DNA of 64,000 nucleotides from Acidobacteriota bacterium (lineage in GTDB: Bacteria > Acidobacteriota > Vicinamibacteria > Vicinamibacterales > 2-12-FULL-66-21). The stretch covers positions 1 to 64,000 of the forward strand of contig QHWT01000055.1 in assembly GCA_003222675.1 (NCBI GenBank). The letters are read 5' to 3'. A model generated the notes under the pieces. The model was not told the DNA's origin, did no database searches, and saw only the letters and a program-made list of their open reading frames with translations. This document shows positions 46,250-55,534 of the stretch, in pieces. The translations under genes were made by a program, and so were the position numbers. Numbering within the stretch: position 1 is the first letter of the stretch; the number at the start of each line of letters is the position of its first letter.

Positions 46250-47022
46250 TGCTGCCGACGGTGCGGGCCCTCGCGCCACGGCTGGCCGGGCAGTCGCTGT
46301 TTTACTTGTCCTCGCAGGGCACTGGTGACGGCCTGTGGCGTTTCGAGGACGGCAAGGCTGTCGAGATCTTGAAGGGATCTGACGAGGCGTTGTTCGAACC
46401 GCCGGCGGTCTCGGCGGATGGACACCAGCTGGCCGTGATCCTGAGGCGCGACGGAAAATTGCGCCTCCACGTCCTATCCGCAGATGGCGGCGATCTTCAA
46501 TCGCTCGCGGGGCCGATTGACGTTCGGGGATCGGTCTGCTGGTCGCCCGATAGCAAGTGGATCATTGCGGGCGGCATCGACGATCGTGGACCTGGGCTGT
46601 TCAAGATTCCCCTGAACCACGGCACGCCTGTCAGACTGATCGCCGGCACTGCCCGCGATCCGGTGTGGTCGCCGTCCGGAGATCTGATTGTGTACACCGG
46701 AGCCAACGTCAGCGTCGATGCGCCTCTATTGGCCATTCGAGCGGACGGTACGAATGTCGAATTGCCTGTAATCCGGCTTCGGGTTGAAGGAAACCGCTAT
46801 CGATTCGTTCCAAATGGCCTGGCGCTCGTGTACGCGCAAGGACCGTTTCCGGCGCAGGACTTCTGGCTGCTCGACATGGCGACGAAAAAATCGCGCCAAC
46901 TGAGCCACTTCAACAACTCCGCGGCCACGCAGTCTTTCGATGTGACCGCCGACGGCAAGCAGATCGTGTTCGACAGAGTGCGGGAAAACTCTGATATCGT
47001 CCTGATCGACCTTGCTCGATGA
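45685..47022 (+). pseudogene. TolB/WD40-like propeller of the kinase, displaced C-terminal part
   Basis: The frame resumes as FLVDRAVEVVWSSDGARMVY, continues with repeated blade motifs (WSPDGRWIYFARG, VSADGHQLAVI, WSPDSKWIIAGG, WSPSGDLIVYTG, VTADGKQIVFDR) and ends with NSDIVLIDLAR. In relatives it is fused behind the kinase and TM helix. Some tens of residues are missing between the two pieces, so a deletion rather than a single-base error is likely. Confidence 0.7.
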
Positions 47023-47059
47023 GATGCCCGCATTCGAGTCGCAAGGACACGCTTAATCC

Positions 47060-47637
47060 CTAGTCCGCGCGCAACACTTTCACCGGGTCGAGCCGTAAGG
47101 CACGGTACGCCGGCACCAGGCTTGCCATCAAGGCAACACGGGCCAGCGTGGCCGCGACTGCAGCAAGCGTCAGCGGAGCTGATGCGCTCACACCAAAGAC
47201 GAACGTTTCCATGACCCTCGCCGACGCCAGCGCGGCGATCGTTCCGGCCGCGATGCCGACGAGCGTCGGCGACATACCCTCGACGATCACCAGACGAAGA
47301 ACGTCGGCTGTCCGCGCGCCAAGCGCGGTTCTGATCCCGATCTCGCGGCTGCGTCCGGGGACGATGTAAGAGAGCACGCTGTAGATTCCGACTGCGGCGA
47401 GAGAGCAGCGCGACTCCTGCAAAGACTCCGAGCAGCAGCGCGCTGAAGCGCTGCGACGTCAGTCCCGCGTCGAGCACCTGCATCATCGTCCGGATATCTC
47501 CGACCGGCTGCTCTGGATCGATCGCGCGGATCGCTGCAACGGCAGGCTGGGCGAGCGTTCCGACCACCTGCCGAGGCACCGTCTTCGAGAAGGGCAGGCC
47601 TCGCTGGAGCTCATCGATGGTGGCGAGACACATGTGA
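47060..47637 (-). pseudogene. ADOP/MacB-type ABC permease, C-terminal fragment
   Basis: The minus strand reads VAAIRAIDPEQPVGDIRTMM, QRFSALLLGVFAGVAL, then in a shifted frame (near 47405) LAAVGIYSVLSYIVPGRSRE, IGIRTALGARTADVLRLV and LVPAYRALRLDPVKVLRAD. This is the last FtsX domain of acidobacterial duplicated-orphan permeases. The first three quarters of the protein are absent. It is cut at about 47637, where a second 5-prime-truncated gene starts on the other strand. Confidence 0.7.
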
Positions 47638-51266: not shown

Positions 51267-53552
51267 TCAGGCCGCCACTGTTTCCGTCTGGTCGCTGCTC
51301 AAGAGATGCTTCAGCTTCAACACCACGCTGATCCAGTAGACGTTGGATCCGATCGCTGCCAGGACGACGACGAGCGGAACGAGCCCCAGCAGCGCGAGCG
51401 CCATGATGCCGTACGGCATGGCCGAGCGCGTCGCGCAGAACGACAATCGCCAGATGACGCGCGACCACAACGACGGTTCCGCCATGAACCGCTCGCGTCC
51501 GATCGCGTGCAGCTTCTGCGGCTGTCCCGCCGTGATGCGGCTCCTCAGGAAGATGAGCAGCGCGAAGGTCACGAGCGTGCCCGCGAGCGCCGCCGCGCCG
51601 AACCAGTAGAAGATCGGCAGGCCCGTAAATCGCACGGCACCGAGGGTCATCCCGATGAAAATCGCGATGTAGTACGAGTAGTCGCCGACTGTTTCGATCC
51701 AGCAGCCCAGCGCGGACTCCTGGTACTTGAGCCGCGCGATTTCCCCGTCGCATCCATCGAGGACGCTCGCCGCGAGGCTCAGGAATGCGGCGAGCACGCT
51801 CGCGCCGTAACCTCCAAGGCTGAAAAGCCACGCTGAATAGAATCCGATTGCCACCAGAGCGACCGAGAACTGGTTTGCGGTCAGCGACGTCGGAATAAGG
51901 GCGATGCTGATCGGCAGCGACATCCGGCGGTTGAATCGCGCGAGCATGTTGTCGGTGTTCTTATAGCTCGCGAGGCGCATTGTTTGTTCCGCCGGCATCA
52001 GATCCGCATCGTCGTGCACGCGCAGCGTGAGTCGTCCGAGCTCATTCGACACGTCGTCACCTGACGGTAGCGGCACATGCGAGACGAGACGCGTGTGCAG
52101 ATGTTCGGCGAGCCCTTCAGGATCCAATACCTCGGCCGCTTGCAACCGGAGGAGTCCGGATGCTGGCCATGAAGGACCGGCAGGCACGTCGCGCGCACCG
52201 CGGGCGACCGCAAGGTGCGCGGCTGCTTCGAGGAGTGCCGGTGATACGACCGTGCCCGCACCGATTACGGTGACGGCTTCATCGGGCGCGAGCGCGCCAA
52301 CCGCGTCGCGCCATGCTGAGGCGCGCACCAATTGGAGATGCCCGCGGATCTCGCGCGCCAGTCGACGCATACCGGGCTCGATGGCATCATCGATCAGCAC
52401 GATCACGCGCCCGTAATGGGCGCGAAGCGCGGATCGCAGGACACGCTCGGCAATCGGCAGCCCCGCGATTCGGGCGAACGGCGACACGCGTACCGCGGGA
52501 TCGAGCGGCAGGTAAAGGAGGGTAGGGCGCCTCGGCTCTTGACTCTGTTGGATCGCGGCTCGCCCGGCCGCAGGGCTGCGCCGGTCGCGCCGCGGATAAA
52601 TCGCGAGGCCGACACCGGCCCAGAAGATCCCTCGAAGCCTTCGCGCGAGCGCGAGCGGGGCGCCGCCGGCGGATGCGCCAACCGCCGCAACCGCGGCAAG
52701 GCTCGATGCTTCGAGCGCGCCGAGGTTCGCGGGGATGAATGCGGACGCGAAGCTCGCGACGCGCGAGAACGTCTCGATCGTCATCGCGCCAGTCAGCGAA
52801 ATCGGAATGTTCATCGCCCGCAGAATCAGCCATGCCTCCGCCGACATGCACACGTACGCCGCAATCGTGGCCGCGACCAGCACTGCGAGTCGCGCACTAG
52901 TGCCCCGCACCAGATCCAGAAGCTGCCGCTCGACGTCGGTCGCGAATCGCGCGACGCGGCCGTCTCCGAGCCGTGTGCCAAACGCGCCATCGATGCGCCC
53001 CAGCGCGCTGGCTACATATGTTCCCCGCCCGGTGAGCACGAGGGCCGTGAAGAACGCGATTACGCCCGACGCAATGGCAAAGGCGCGAAACACCCGGAAC
53101 CACGTCCGCGACAACGGTAGCGCTCCGAGCGCGGCCAGGGAGCCGACGCCCACGATCAATGTCGTCCCGATTAAATAAGCCAGACGTTCGAGCGCCACCG
53201 CGACGGTTGCTTCGCGCGCATCCACTTCGTCGTTGAGGAGCACGATCTTCAGTGGCTCACCAGCAATGCCGCGCAGCGTCAGATAGCTGAAGGCTTCCGC
53301 CGCGAGTCGCACGCGCGCGAGTCGCGCGAACGGCACCCGCCGCGGGCGCTTGAAGCACCACGCCCACGCCCACGTGCGCGCCAGATGCCAGAGTCCGCTT
53401 GCGACCAGCGCCAGCGCGAACGCCAGGCCGAGCCTCCGGCCCGCCGCGAACACGAGTTGAAAATCGATGTAATACAGCGTGGCGAGAAACAGCACGCACC
53501 CGACGGTGAGGGCCCCAAGCGAAATGAGTGCCCGGCGTCGTTCCGGCGTCAT
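51267..53552 (-). CDS. Three-part membrane fusion: UPF0104 flippase-like, degenerate nucleotidyltransferase, CDP-alcohol phosphatidyltransferase
   Basis: This 761-residue protein has three parts. Residues 1-320 form a LPG-synthase-TM/UPF0104-like membrane domain (SYLTLRGIAGEPLKIVLL, FIPANLGALEASSLAA). Residues 340-500 look like a nucleotidyltransferase fold (VSPFARIAGLPIAERVLRSA) but lack the G-x-G-x-R signature. Residues 530-760 are a CDP-alcohol phosphotransferase (motif SVLDGCDGEIARLKYQES then GCWIETVGDY), with Glu where the third Asp is usual. It probably joins an alcohol phosphate head group to a CDP-activated partner in the membrane. Its ATG overlaps the stop of the upstream nucleotidyltransferase gene. 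Confidence 0.75.
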   Translation of the reverse strand: MTPERRRALISLGALTVGCVLFLATLYYIDFQLVFAAGRRLGLAFALALVASGLWHLARTWAWAWCFKRPRRVPFARLARVRLAAEAFSYLTLRGIAGEPLKIVLLNDEVDAREATVAVALERLAYLIGTTLIVGVGSLAALGALPLSRTWFRVFRAFAIASGVIAFFTALVLTGRGTYVASALGRIDGAFGTRLGDGRVARFATDVERQLLDLVRGTSARLAVLVAATIAAYVCMSAEAWLILRAMNIPISLTGAMTIETFSRVASFASAFIPANLGALEASSLAAVAAVGASAGGAPLALARRLRGIFWAGVGLAIYPRRDRRSPAAGRAAIQQSQEPRRPTLLYLPLDPAVRVSPFARIAGLPIAERVLRSALRAHYGRVIVLIDDAIEPGMRRLAREIRGHLQLVRASAWRDAVGALAPDEAVTVIGAGTVVSPALLEAAAHLAVARGARDVPAGPSWPASGLLRLQAAEVLDPEGLAEHLHTRLVSHVPLPSGDDVSNELGRLTLRVHDDADLMPAEQTMRLASYKNTDNMLARFNRRMSLPISIALIPTSLTANQFSVALVAIGFYSAWLFSLGGYGASVLAAFLSLAASVLDGCDGEIARLKYQESALGCWIETVGDYSYYIAIFIGMTLGAVRFTGLPIFYWFGAAALAGTLVTFALLIFLRSRITAGQPQKLHAIGRERFMAEPSLWSRVIWRLSFCATRSAMPYGIMALALLGLVPLVVVLAAIGSNVYWISVVLKLKHLLSSDQTETVAA

Positions 53553-54271
53553 GCGCGTTCGGAGGTTGCGGCCAGCACGGATTCGGCGGCTTCGAGGTCC
53601 GACACCGTGTCGATGTCGCGCCATGTGGCATTGCCGACCTCGACGGCGCGCATCAGGCCTCGGGCGGCGAGTTGACCGATCCCGCCGCTCAGTGTGGTGT
53701 CGCCTTGCGCACGCGATGCTTCCAGCGCCTCGAACAGCAGCGGCGAGCACACGAACATCCCCGTATCGAGCGCATCGTAATCGGCGAGGTCTTTGCCAAT
53801 CGCGACGATGCGGGAGTCGTCGCGGCGGACCTTCGTGGCTTCGGCTGCGACGGCCGGGGCCACCGGCCGCGCGTCGACGGCGAGCACGGACTCGTCACTC
53901 CGCATCGAGAACTGCAGCAAGCGGCGAAGGACCTCAGGCTCGAACACGTGATCGCCCATGAGGACCGCGAAGCGCTCCGTGTCGATTGAGCGGCGGGCGG
54001 CGAGCACGGACACGCCGTTCTCGAGCCGCCAGTCTGGATTCAGCGCGAAGGAAATCTTGACGCCGGGTGTCGCCGCCCCCTCCACAAGCGCGCGGACGCG
54101 GTCGGCTTGATAGCCCAGTACGACCGTAATCGCATCGACGCCTGCGTCACGCACCGTGTCCAGCGTGCGCAAGAGCAGCGGTTGTCCGAGAAAGGGATGG
54201 AGCAGCTTGGAATCGCGCGTTCGGTTGTGAAATCGATCGCCGTTGCCGGCGGCCAGCACGATGGCGTTCAC
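53549..54271 (-). CDS. Sugar/inositol-phosphate nucleotidyltransferase
   Basis: This 240-residue GT-A-like nucleotidyltransferase has the signature VLAAGNGDRFHNRTRDSKLL, PFLGQPLLLRTLDTVRDAG, a metal-site Asp in VLMGDHVFEP, and WRDIDTVSDLEAAESVL at the end. It is most like inositol-1-phosphate cytidylyltransferases and related CTP-dependent enzymes. It could supply the CDP-activated head group for the CDP-alcohol phosphotransferase with which it overlaps by four bases. The start is GTG at 54271. Confidence 0.75.
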   Translation of the reverse strand: MNAIVLAAGNGDRFHNRTRDSKLLHPFLGQPLLLRTLDTVRDAGVDAITVVLGYQADRVRALVEGAATPGVKISFALNPDWRLENGVSVLAARRSIDTERFAVLMGDHVFEPEVLRRLLQFSMRSDESVLAVDARPVAPAVAAEATKVRRDDSRIVAIGKDLADYDALDTGMFVCSPLLFEALEASRAQGDTTLSGGIGQLAARGLMRAVEVGNATWRDIDTVSDLEAAESVLAATSERA

Positions 54272-54423
54272 TACAACCCTCGAGTCTGCCGGCCCGAGCC
54301 GGCGGGTTCAGACCTCAGGAGCGTGAACTTCGCGCCGCCCCTCACTGTCGTACTTTTGACGCACGTCGTACGGCTGGCGTTTCCATCACAGTCGTACAAG
54401 CTGATTTTACTGCACGTTTCGGG

Positions 54424-54528
54424 TCATCCTGGGTTGTGCAATTGCACGCTTCATGCCCCACGCCACAGAACGACACAGAAGAACACTGAACTGGTCTGTG
54501 TTGGTCGATGTGTTCTGTGGCCGTTATT
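54424..54528. repeat. CACAGAA-word hairpin before the second UPF0104 gene end
   Basis: CCACAGAACGACACAGAAG on the left pairs with TGTGTTCTGTGG and CTGTGTTGG on the right. It forms a degenerate-word hairpin between the nucleotidyltransferase start and the stop of the upstream gene. The preceding stretch 54272-54423 has three copies of GTCGTAC but no gene. Confidence 0.55.
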
Positions 54529-55534
54529 GCTGACCCTCCGGCACCTCGGGGGCGCGCGGCACCAGCCCCTCGCGTGTCAGCAGGATCCCACCGGCAATCG
54601 TCCAGGCGAGCACGCGCGCCTTGCGGACGATGCCCAGCGTGACGCCGGTGTTTGCCCCAAGGCCGAGGACTTGGGTGAACAGCGCCGTCGCCGCTTCGTC
54701 GACGCCGAGCCGCAGCGGAACGAATTTGAACACGACCGTGATCAGCCGGTTCGTCGTTTCGAGAATGAACGCGGTGAGGAGCGCGGGCGGCGCGCCGTAG
54801 AGGAGCCACAACGTCAGGAAGATTTCGGCGACGCCCAGCGCATGGAAGCCGGCTTCCATCGACGCGATGGCCGGCAGCGCCGTGCGATGGCGCGAGGCGA
54901 ACGTGTAGATCTGTTCCTCGAGCTCCCGGACACGCACCGCGTGCCGGTGCAGCGGCGATGTGCGGTGGGAACGAGAGATGACGCCGAGCGCGCGGCTGAT
55001 GAGCGCCGGCTGACGCCAGAGCAGCCAGAGCGCGACGGCGAATAATACGATCGTCGCCGCGATCGCGATCTCGCCGACGTCCCTGATCGCGGCAGGCAGT
55101 TCGAAGCGGAACAGCAAGGCGACCATGCCGACGGCGATCATCGCCGCGGCCGACAACGTGTAGAGCACGTTCTCAATTGCGAGTGCCGTGACGGCCGGCC
55201 CGAGCGCCACGCGTCCCCGCACGAAGGCGGCCTTTGCGGGTTCCCCCACCAGCGGTCCGAGCGGCGTCAGGTTGCCGATGGTATCGCCGCAGATCACTGC
55301 AGAAAACGCATCGGACAACGCGAGCCGGTGCGGCGGTTCGAGGCACAATCGCCAGGCGAGCGCGCGCATCAGAAACCCCAGGCCGCCAATCGCGATGATC
55401 GCGATCAATCCCCATCCTACCTGGCGAAAGTCCGAGGCGATCTGCGCGACGCCGACGTACTCCACCACCCACGCGAGCAGCGCCAGACCGGCGGCGGCGG
55501 TGATGAGGCCCGTCACGTTGAATCGGCGGCGCAT
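54524..55534 (-). CDS. UPF0104/LPG-synthase-TM-type integral membrane protein
   Basis: This 336-residue protein has about eight helices and the family motifs GFLMRALAWRLCL, CGDTIGNLTPLGPLVGEPAK (the conserved G-x-L-x-P-x-G/E-x2-K loop) and VPLRLGVDEAATALFTQVLG. Relatives include the flippase half of MprF. It is upstream of, and in the same direction as, the nucleotidyltransferase and the fusion gene, giving two members of this family in one locus. Confidence 0.8.
   Translation of the reverse strand: MRRRFNVTGLITAAAGLALLAWVVEYVGVAQIASDFRQVGWGLIAIIAIGGLGFLMRALAWRLCLEPPHRLALSDAFSAVICGDTIGNLTPLGPLVGEPAKAAFVRGRVALGPAVTALAIENVLYTLSAAAMIAVGMVALLFRFELPAAIRDVGEIAIAATIVLFAVALWLLWRQPALISRALGVISRSHRTSPLHRHAVRVRELEEQIYTFASRHRTALPAIASMEAGFHALGVAEIFLTLWLLYGAPPALLTAFILETTNRLITVVFKFVPLRLGVDEAATALFTQVLGLGANTGVTLGIVRKARVLAWTIAGGILLTREGLVPRAPEVPEGQQ

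What the first reader, a model, noticed from the sequence alone, without database searches (positions are those of the whole stretch)
51267..55534. Candidate new lipid head-group locus: two UPF0104 proteins, a CTP-type nucleotidyltransferase and a triple-fusion CDP-alcohol phosphotransferase
The genes overlap or run in one direction. The nucleotidyltransferase could make a CDP-activated polyol or inositol, and the C-terminal domain of the fusion could transfer it to a lipid or second alcohol. The UPF0104 domains could move the product across the membrane. In known inositol-phosphate systems the nucleotidyltransferase and phosphotransferase are fused. Here the fused nucleotidyltransferase domain has lost its signature, an active-looking copy is encoded separately, and the phosphotransferase motif has Glu for the third Asp. 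I know of no described pathway with this combination.
Basis: inference. Interest (0 to 1): 0.75.

Follow-up and report, generated by a model that had tools for sequence, protein, structure and literature searches.

The report
Split CDP-inositol lipid enzymes, flippase-fused
An uncultured acidobacterium carries a two-gene set that probably activates inositol phosphate with CTP and transfers it to a membrane lipid, using an enzyme welded to a flippase-like protein; the chemistry has precedents, but this repeated welding of flippase-like and head-group enzymes looks new and is testable in cultured relatives.

Summary
On the minus strand lie an UPF0104 protein (54524-55534), an intact nucleotidyltransferase (53549-54271) and, overlapping it by 4 nt, a 761-aa UPF0104 / degenerate nucleotidyltransferase / CDP-alcohol phosphotransferase fusion (51267-53552) whose third motif Asp is Glu.

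The nucleotidyltransferase is CTP:inositol-1-phosphate cytidylyltransferase-like (142 bits to that enzyme; next kind 68). The fused degenerate domain plus phosphotransferase has the architecture of AF2299. The pair is inherited together: 7 of 12 family genomes have both genes, 5 have neither. The same pair occurs in Acidobacteriaceae such as Edaphobacter aggregans. Related loci supply the missing context: an unfused operon inositol-1-phosphate synthase / nucleotidyltransferase / UPF0104 / phosphotransferase in another acidobacterium, synthase adjacency in 19 loci, UPF0104-nucleotidyltransferase fusions, and MlaC/MMPL lipid-transport neighbours.

Best reading: CDP-inositol-dependent inositol-lipid synthesis with a coupled flippase-like domain. 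Substrate, acceptor and flipping are inferred. Verdict: new variant of a known kind.

The parts
53549..54271 (-). Intact nucleotidyltransferase (240 aa, GTG start), IPCT-like; R13, K22, D107, D219, D221 conserved
51267..53552 (-). Triple-fusion protein (761 aa, ATG start overlapping the nucleotidyltransferase stop)
52593..53552 (-). N-terminal UPF0104 / LPG_synthase_TM domain of the fusion (residues 1-320)
   Evidence: Pfam PF03706 63.3 bits; tree groups it with unfused UPF0104 genes of family f2
51963..52532 (-). Degenerate nucleotidyltransferase domain (about residues 341-530), no GxGxR signature
   Evidence: Profile comparison 97.3%, E 1.8e-11; AlphaFold pLDDT about 90; Foldseek AF2299
51270..51950 (-). 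CDP-alcohol phosphotransferase domain (residues 535-761), long-tail subtype (137 residues after the last motif Asp)
   Evidence: Pfam PF01066, PDB AF2299 and 4mnd
51681..51758 (-). Catalytic motif DGCDGEIARLKYQESALGCWIETVGD; Glu620 codon at 51693-51695 replaces the third Asp
   Evidence: Sequence; invariant in A1
54524..55534 (-). Stand-alone UPF0104 protein (336 aa); conserved neighbour in the family but probably an older resident of the recR locus
54459..54523 (-). Palindromic dispersed repeat between the UPF0104 gene and the nucleotidyltransferase (9 matches in the genome)

Best explanation
A CDP-inositol-dependent inositol-lipid module. The separate nucleotidyltransferase condenses CTP with inositol-1-phosphate (made by the genome's own inositol-1-phosphate synthase) to CDP-inositol. 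The phosphotransferase domain of the fusion transfers phosphoinositol from CDP-inositol to a membrane acceptor (diacyl- or dialkylglycerol, or a ceramide-like lipid), releasing CMP. The degenerate nucleotidyltransferase domain is a non-catalytic scaffold, as in AF2299, perhaps docking the active enzyme. The fused UPF0104 domain moves the product, or presents the lipid acceptor, across the inner membrane. Shown: gene anatomy, homology, conservation, linkage, predicted fold. Inferred: inositol as substrate, lipid acceptor, translocation.
For: Nucleotidyltransferase profile: 143 and 142 bits to A. fulgidus IPCT and IPCT-DIPPS, 115 to T. maritima IPCT, next kind 68, choline cytidylyltransferase 52; 37-40% identical to enzymes encoded next to inositol-1-phosphate synthase (PF01658 E 2e-36, 5e-37). 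Synthase adjacency in 19 loci of several phyla. Operon synthase / nucleotidyltransferase / UPF0104 / degenerate-NT+phosphotransferase in acidobacterium L199; same order, unfused, without the synthase in L192; nucleotidyltransferase-UPF0104 fused in L189/L190 beside a phosphotransferase and the synthase. UPF0104 tree: the UPF0104-phosphotransferase fusion probably arose twice. MlaC and MMPL neighbours in Latescibacterota and kin. Long-tail phosphotransferases have lipid-handling neighbours in 34 of 43 loci, short-tail (DIPPS-like) in 2 of 38. Own genome encodes the synthase. Phosphatidylinositol is a minor lipid in the acidobacterium Occallatibacter bavaricus (PMC12935467).
Against: The synthase is not near this locus and is nearly universal in the order (56 of 60 relatives), so its presence is not specific. 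The window enzyme sits on a long stem in the tree, and a related enzyme (CpgD) makes CDP-glycerate instead (PMC12275187), so the substrate could have changed. The phosphotransferase domain shows no extra C-terminal TM helices, which PMC4634129 associates with lipid acceptors. AF2299 and AfDIPPS do not process lipids. UPF0104 transport function is untested here.
Confidence: 0.52

Rival explanations
1. Same lipid-head-group logic with another activated alcohol: the nucleotidyltransferase makes CDP-glycerate, CDP-glycerol or another CDP-polyol, and the fusion adds that phospho-alcohol to a lipid (as proposed for CDP-glycerate and ceramide lipids in Caulobacter).
For: CpgD, whose top structural match is T. 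maritima IPCT, is a phosphoglycerate cytidylyltransferase (PMC12275187). AF2299, the best structural match of the fusion's C-terminal half, was described with CDP-glycerol as donor (PMC4634129; fold match). Long stem of the window clade.
Against: CpgD shares only 24% identity with T. maritima IPCT, whereas the window enzyme shares 37-42% with enzymes of synthase-linked and UPF0104-linked loci and scores best against IPCTs. The L199 operon places inositol-1-phosphate synthase in front of the same gene set.
Confidence: 0.25
2. A di-myo-inositol-phosphate-type soluble solute pathway: CDP-inositol is joined to inositol-1-phosphate and the product dephosphorylated; UPF0104 exports it or is incidental.
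For: Homology to IPCT-DIPPS. Inositol monophosphatase next to fused relatives (L051 and Eisenbacteria/Zixibacteria loci). An inositol monophosphatase-family gene exists in the genome.
Against: The window phosphotransferase is of the long-tail subtype, which lacks the shorter TM4-TM6 region of synthase-linked DIPPS-like enzymes and keeps lipid-handling neighbours. UPF0104 fusion occurs with this subtype. DIP solutes are known mainly from (hyper)thermophiles (own knowledge).
Confidence: 0.13
3. Decoration of a surface glycopolymer or polyprenyl-linked precursor with phospho-polyol groups, UPF0104 acting on the lipid-linked intermediate.
For: A relative (L048) lies among glycosyltransferase and polysaccharide-flippase-like genes (families read from sequence, not scanned). 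UPF0104 proteins are common near glycosyltransferases (own knowledge).
Against: No glycosyltransferase at the window locus: it lies between recR and a small membrane-protein gene in the family members. Class I CDP-alcohol phosphotransferases are described as acting on small alcohols or lipids (PMC4634129).
Confidence: 0.07

Closest known systems
Bifunctional IPCT-DIPPS of Archaeoglobus fulgidus (PDB 4MND) and IPCT (2XME)
   Same: IPCT-type nucleotidyltransferase with all catalytic residues; class I CDP-alcohol phosphotransferase
   Different: The active nucleotidyltransferase is a separate gene; the fused copy is degenerate; a UPF0104 domain is added; third Asp is Glu; longer C-terminal half
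AF2299 (PDB 4O6M, 4O6N, 4Q7C)
   Same: Cytidylyltransferase-like N-terminal domain plus CDP-alcohol phosphotransferase; best Foldseek match (TM-score 0.76-0.78 normalised to AF2299)
   Different: No UPF0104 domain; Asp at position 3; CDP-glycerol seen as donor; biological role unclear
CDP-inositol pathway to dialkylether glycerophosphoinositol in Rhodothermus marinus (Jorge et al. 2015, cited in PMC9246714)
   Same: IPCT-like enzyme plus transferase using CDP-inositol as head-group donor
   Different: No UPF0104 fusion described; details rest on the citation and own knowledge, since the paper is not held
Bacteroides vulgatus alternative inositol-lipid cluster (PMC9246714)
   Same: NTP transferase + CDP-alcohol phosphotransferase, inositol-phosphate synthase nearby, lysylphosphatidylglycerol-synthase-like (BT_1521-type) gene in the vicinity
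   Different: Separate genes; HAD hydrolase present; the lysylphosphatidylglycerol-synthase-like gene was noted only as a neighbour
Caulobacter CpgD, ceramide diphosphoglycerate pathway (PMC12275187)
   Same: IPCT-fold cytidylyltransferase feeding a lipid head group
   Different: Makes CDP-glycerate; 24% identical to T. maritima IPCT; no UPF0104 fusion described in the part read

Membership tests
CTP:inositol-1-phosphate cytidylyltransferase (IPCT) | GxGxR signature and catalytic Arg, Lys, Asp (R16, K26, D112 of T. maritima IPCT) | tested here: met
   G9NGDR13, K22, D107 invariant in 15 relatives; equivalence to R16/K26/D112 by alignment
CTP:inositol-1-phosphate cytidylyltransferase (IPCT) | Closer to IPCT than to other sugar or alcohol nucleotidyltransferases | tested here: met
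   142.7, 141.5 and 115.3 bits against at most 67.6 for any other solved kind
CTP:inositol-1-phosphate cytidylyltransferase (IPCT) | Forms CDP-inositol from CTP and inositol-1-phosphate | not testable with these tools
   Needs an enzyme assay
Class I CDP-alcohol phosphotransferase | Homology to PF01066 above the curated cut-off and matching fold | tested here: met
   30.3 against 22 bits; Foldseek to AF2299, 4MND and PIP synthases
Class I CDP-alcohol phosphotransferase | Literal motif DxxDGxxAR(x)8GxxxDxxxD with Asp at position 3 | tested here: not met
   Glu620, invariant in the family; orthologue L074 has Asp. Filed as a homologue with a variant motif
Bifunctional IPCT-DIPPS (NF041135 equivalog) | Score above 580 bits with both active domains in one chain | tested here: not met
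   49.9 bits (fusion) and 110.4 bits (nucleotidyltransferase); fused NT domain lacks GxGxR
AF2299-type (cytidylyltransferase-like domain + CDP-alcohol phosphotransferase) | Both domains in this order with matching fold | tested here: met
   Top Foldseek hits span about 420 columns
LPG_synthase_TM / UPF0104 (PF03706) | Pfam gathering score | tested here: met
   Fused domain 63.3 against 33.4 bits; the stand-alone protein has no Pfam hit
HpnL (TIGR03476) | Score above 195.65 bits | tested here: not met
   60.3 (fusion) and 88.1 bits (stand-alone)
MprF lysyl-phosphatidylglycerol synthase/flippase | C-terminal synthetase domain | tested here: not met
   Absent; stand-alone protein only 16 bits to NF033480
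B. vulgatus-type alternative inositol-lipid cluster | HAD hydrolase and inositol-1-phosphate synthase clustered with the transferases | tested here: not met
   Synthase lies on another contig, C50; immediate neighbours are recR and, read from sequence, a small membrane protein and an OsmC-like gene. No HAD profile was run on the window

The most novel reading that the evidence does not exclude
Acidobacteriota and several other phyla possess an unrecognised inositol-lipid synthase-flippase system: CDP-inositol made by a free cytidylyltransferase is used by a phosphotransferase physically coupled, by repeated independent gene fusion, to a UPF0104 lipid translocase, so that synthesis and translocation of the inositol lipid are one process. 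This would give a UPF0104 subgroup a defined substrate.
Probability: 0.4. Interest if true: 0.72.

Novelty: new variant of a known kind. Interest (0 to 1): 0.56.

Why it matters
Bacterial inositol lipids are considered rare and the CDP-inositol route has few documented cases. The gene set seen here is spread over several lineages of Acidobacteriota (an IPCT-type enzyme in 32 of 297 sampled genomes) and other phyla, includes a cultured strain (Edaphobacter aggregans DSM 19364), and ties the widespread, mostly uncharacterised UPF0104 membrane proteins to a specific head-group pathway. That makes the function of one UPF0104 subgroup directly testable.

Tried and rejected
(1) Presence of inositol-1-phosphate synthase as a phyletic test: nearly universal in the order (56 of 60), so uninformative. 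(2) Direct profile comparison of the window's own degenerate domain family with the active enzyme gave only 3.9% probability; adding Acidobacteriaceae orthologues raised it to 97.3%. (3) The stand-alone UPF0104 gene as a module member: rejected as not specific. (4) A terminator or promoter in the 252-nt gap: fold z-score -0.88, no promoter match; the hairpin is a dispersed repeat. (5) Canonical IPCT-DIPPS, HpnL, MprF: fail curated cut-offs. (6) The too-diverse alignment A3 could not be used for the scan. (8) CpgD could not be placed in the tree because its sequence was not at hand.
Full report
Observation. Three minus-strand genes lie at 51267-55534. Reading downstream: an UPF0104-like protein (54524-55534, 336 aa), a nucleotidyltransferase (53549-54271, 240 aa, GTG start) and a fusion. 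The longest ORF of the fusion begins at GTG 53750, but the likely start is ATG 53552, which overlaps the nucleotidyltransferase stop as ATGA and agrees with relatives, giving 761 aa. Pfam finds LPG_synthase_TM at residues 16-307 and CDP-OH_P_transf at 558-681. Between them is a domain with no family hit.

The separate enzyme. Its best solved relatives are A. fulgidus IPCT (2XME), IPCT-DIPPS (4MND) and T. maritima IPCT (4JD0). With a profile of 15 relatives these score 143, 142 and 115 bits; the next kind scores 68, choline cytidylyltransferase 52. GxGxR, K22, D107 and D219/D221 are invariant. It is the only enzyme of this type in the genome: 352 bits, next 91. Homology does not fix the substrate: CpgD of Caulobacter, whose top structural match is T. 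maritima IPCT, makes CDP-glycerate (PMC12275187).

The fusion. A profile of the middle domain that includes Acidobacteriaceae orthologues matches the active nucleotidyltransferase profile with 97.3% probability, E 1.8e-11, although the window family alone does not; GxGxR is gone. An AlphaFold model from 22 sequences (mean pLDDT 81, about 90 in this domain) has as best PDB matches AF2299 (TM-score 0.76-0.78 on AF2299), then IPCT-DIPPS and PIP synthases. PMC4634129 describes AF2299 as a cytidylyltransferase-like domain on a CDP-alcohol phosphotransferase with CDP-glycerol as donor, and assigns the first three aspartates to metal binding and the fourth to catalysis. So a cytidylyltransferase-like domain fused to the phosphotransferase is a known architecture; the UPF0104 domain is the addition.

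Conservation. In the window's family, seven genomes have the fusion and the same seven have the nucleotidyltransferase; five have neither. Order and position (between recR and a small membrane-protein gene) are the same in at least four genera. The fusion is 60-66% identical between genera and the catalytic motif invariant, while the degenerate domain is the least conserved part.

The stand-alone UPF0104 gene. It groups with order-wide orthologues that are not linked to the nucleotidyltransferase, and in L054 it sits alone at the same recR locus, fused to another domain. The gap to the nucleotidyltransferase is 252 nt and holds a dispersed palindromic repeat. I therefore do not count it as a specific member of the unit.

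Relatives elsewhere. A scan of GTDB genomes gave 296 relatives, of which the best 80 are held. Acidobacteriaceae, including Edaphobacter aggregans DSM 19364 and strain KBS 83, carry nucleotidyltransferase + triple fusion in the same domain order, followed by an endonuclease/exonuclease/phosphatase-family gene. Their motif also has Glu, except L074 with Asp. A phylum sample found IPCT-type enzymes in 32 of 297 genomes.

Context that points to inositol and lipid. (i) Inositol-1-phosphate synthase (PF01658) is next to nucleotidyltransferase homologues in 19 loci from several phyla, six of them acidobacterial. (ii) L199 is a four-gene operon: synthase, nucleotidyltransferase, UPF0104, degenerate-NT + phosphotransferase; L192 has the last three in the same order, unfused. 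(iii) In L189 and L190 the nucleotidyltransferase is fused to UPF0104 and lies beside a phosphotransferase and the synthase. (iv) Inositol monophosphatase is next to other fused relatives. (v) In Latescibacterota and kin the set is followed by MlaC and MMPL genes. Chance proximity is roughly 1.4% for UPF0104 within 7 kb and 0.2% for the synthase within 3 kb (rough estimate).

Two subtypes. The stretch after the last motif Asp is close to bimodal: 105-120 (38 loci) or 133-158 residues (43), with 9 between. Long-tail proteins have UPF0104 or MlaC/MMPL neighbours (UPF0104 fusions included) in 34 of 43 loci and the synthase in 1; short-tail ones in 2 of 38 and 17 of 38. The Fisher p of 6e-12 ignores shared ancestry, and the loci were selected by similarity to the query, so treat it as descriptive. 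The window protein has 137 residues and is of the long type. Aligned, it has a longer TM4-TM5 segment than synthase-linked DIPPS-like enzymes, consistent with a different acceptor.

Repeated fusion. In the UPF0104 tree the window's fused domain groups with unfused genes of family f2 (100/100), whereas the Acidobacteriaceae fused domain groups with the unfused L192 gene (100/98). The UPF0104-phosphotransferase fusion thus probably arose twice, and UPF0104-nucleotidyltransferase once more, which supports functional coupling. Splitting of one ancient fusion in both lines is the alternative.

Mechanism and confidence. I judge CDP-inositol as product of the free enzyme at about 0.7, a lipid acceptor at about 0.7, and the combination at 0.52. 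A role of the fused UPF0104 domain in moving or presenting the lipid is inference. Phosphatidylinositol is reported as a minor lipid of Occallatibacter bavaricus (PMC12935467); whether that strain has the pair was not tested.

Novelty. CDP-inositol as a head-group donor is reported for Rhodothermus (Jorge et al. 2015, cited in PMC9246714) and predicted for Bacteroidetes, where a lysylphosphatidylglycerol-synthase-like gene was noted nearby (PMC9246714; PMC10191378). New here are the split, flippase-fused form, its spread in Acidobacteriota, and the recurrent physical coupling to UPF0104. I found no paper describing this in the library searched, which lacks most subscription journals.

Noticed in passing
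window 54459-54523 (minus strand): Palindromic repeat (about 60 nt, CCACAGAACACA...TGTGTCGTTCTGTGG) between the UPF0104 gene and the nucleotidyltransferase; nine matches across the genome, one other nearly full length (C51:9376-9435).
   Followed up: partly
L089, L086, L091, L094, L100, L101, L107, L120, L082, L083, L090, L097, L102, L106: Latescibacterota/Gemmatimonadota-labelled genomes: fused nucleotidyltransferase-phosphotransferase followed by MlaC and MMPL transporter genes, often with UPF0104 upstream; looks like a lipid synthesis-and-export cluster.
   Followed up: partly
L066-L078, L080, L050:9625-10728: An endonuclease/exonuclease/phosphatase-family gene (PF03372) next to the phosphotransferase gene in Acidobacteriaceae and, with divergent members, in L080 and L050; possibly a phosphatase or phosphodiesterase of the pathway.
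   Followed up: partly
L095, L105, L108, L111, L115, L116, L122, L124, L128, L129, L132, L133, L138, L139, L171, L191, L196: DUF4202 (HD-type) gene directly after the DIPPS-like fusion in many loci, mostly behind an inositol-1-phosphate synthase gene; an unnamed partner of inositol-phosphate metabolism.
   Followed up: partly
L054:4036-5784 (minus strand): In another family of the same order the UPF0104 gene at the recR locus is fused to a C-terminal nucleotidyltransferase-like domain; domain read by eye, not scanned.
   Followed up: no
L187:8924-12400: Two tandem paralogues with a degenerate nucleotidyltransferase plus CDP-alcohol phosphotransferase domain (one with motif DCCDG) behind an IPCT-type gene in an acidobacterium.
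   Followed up: no
window 46797-47633 (minus strand): What reads like the C-terminal part of an FtsX/MacB-type permease is split over two overlapping frames (46797-47633 and 47060-47422), perhaps a broken gene; judged by eye only.
   Followed up: no
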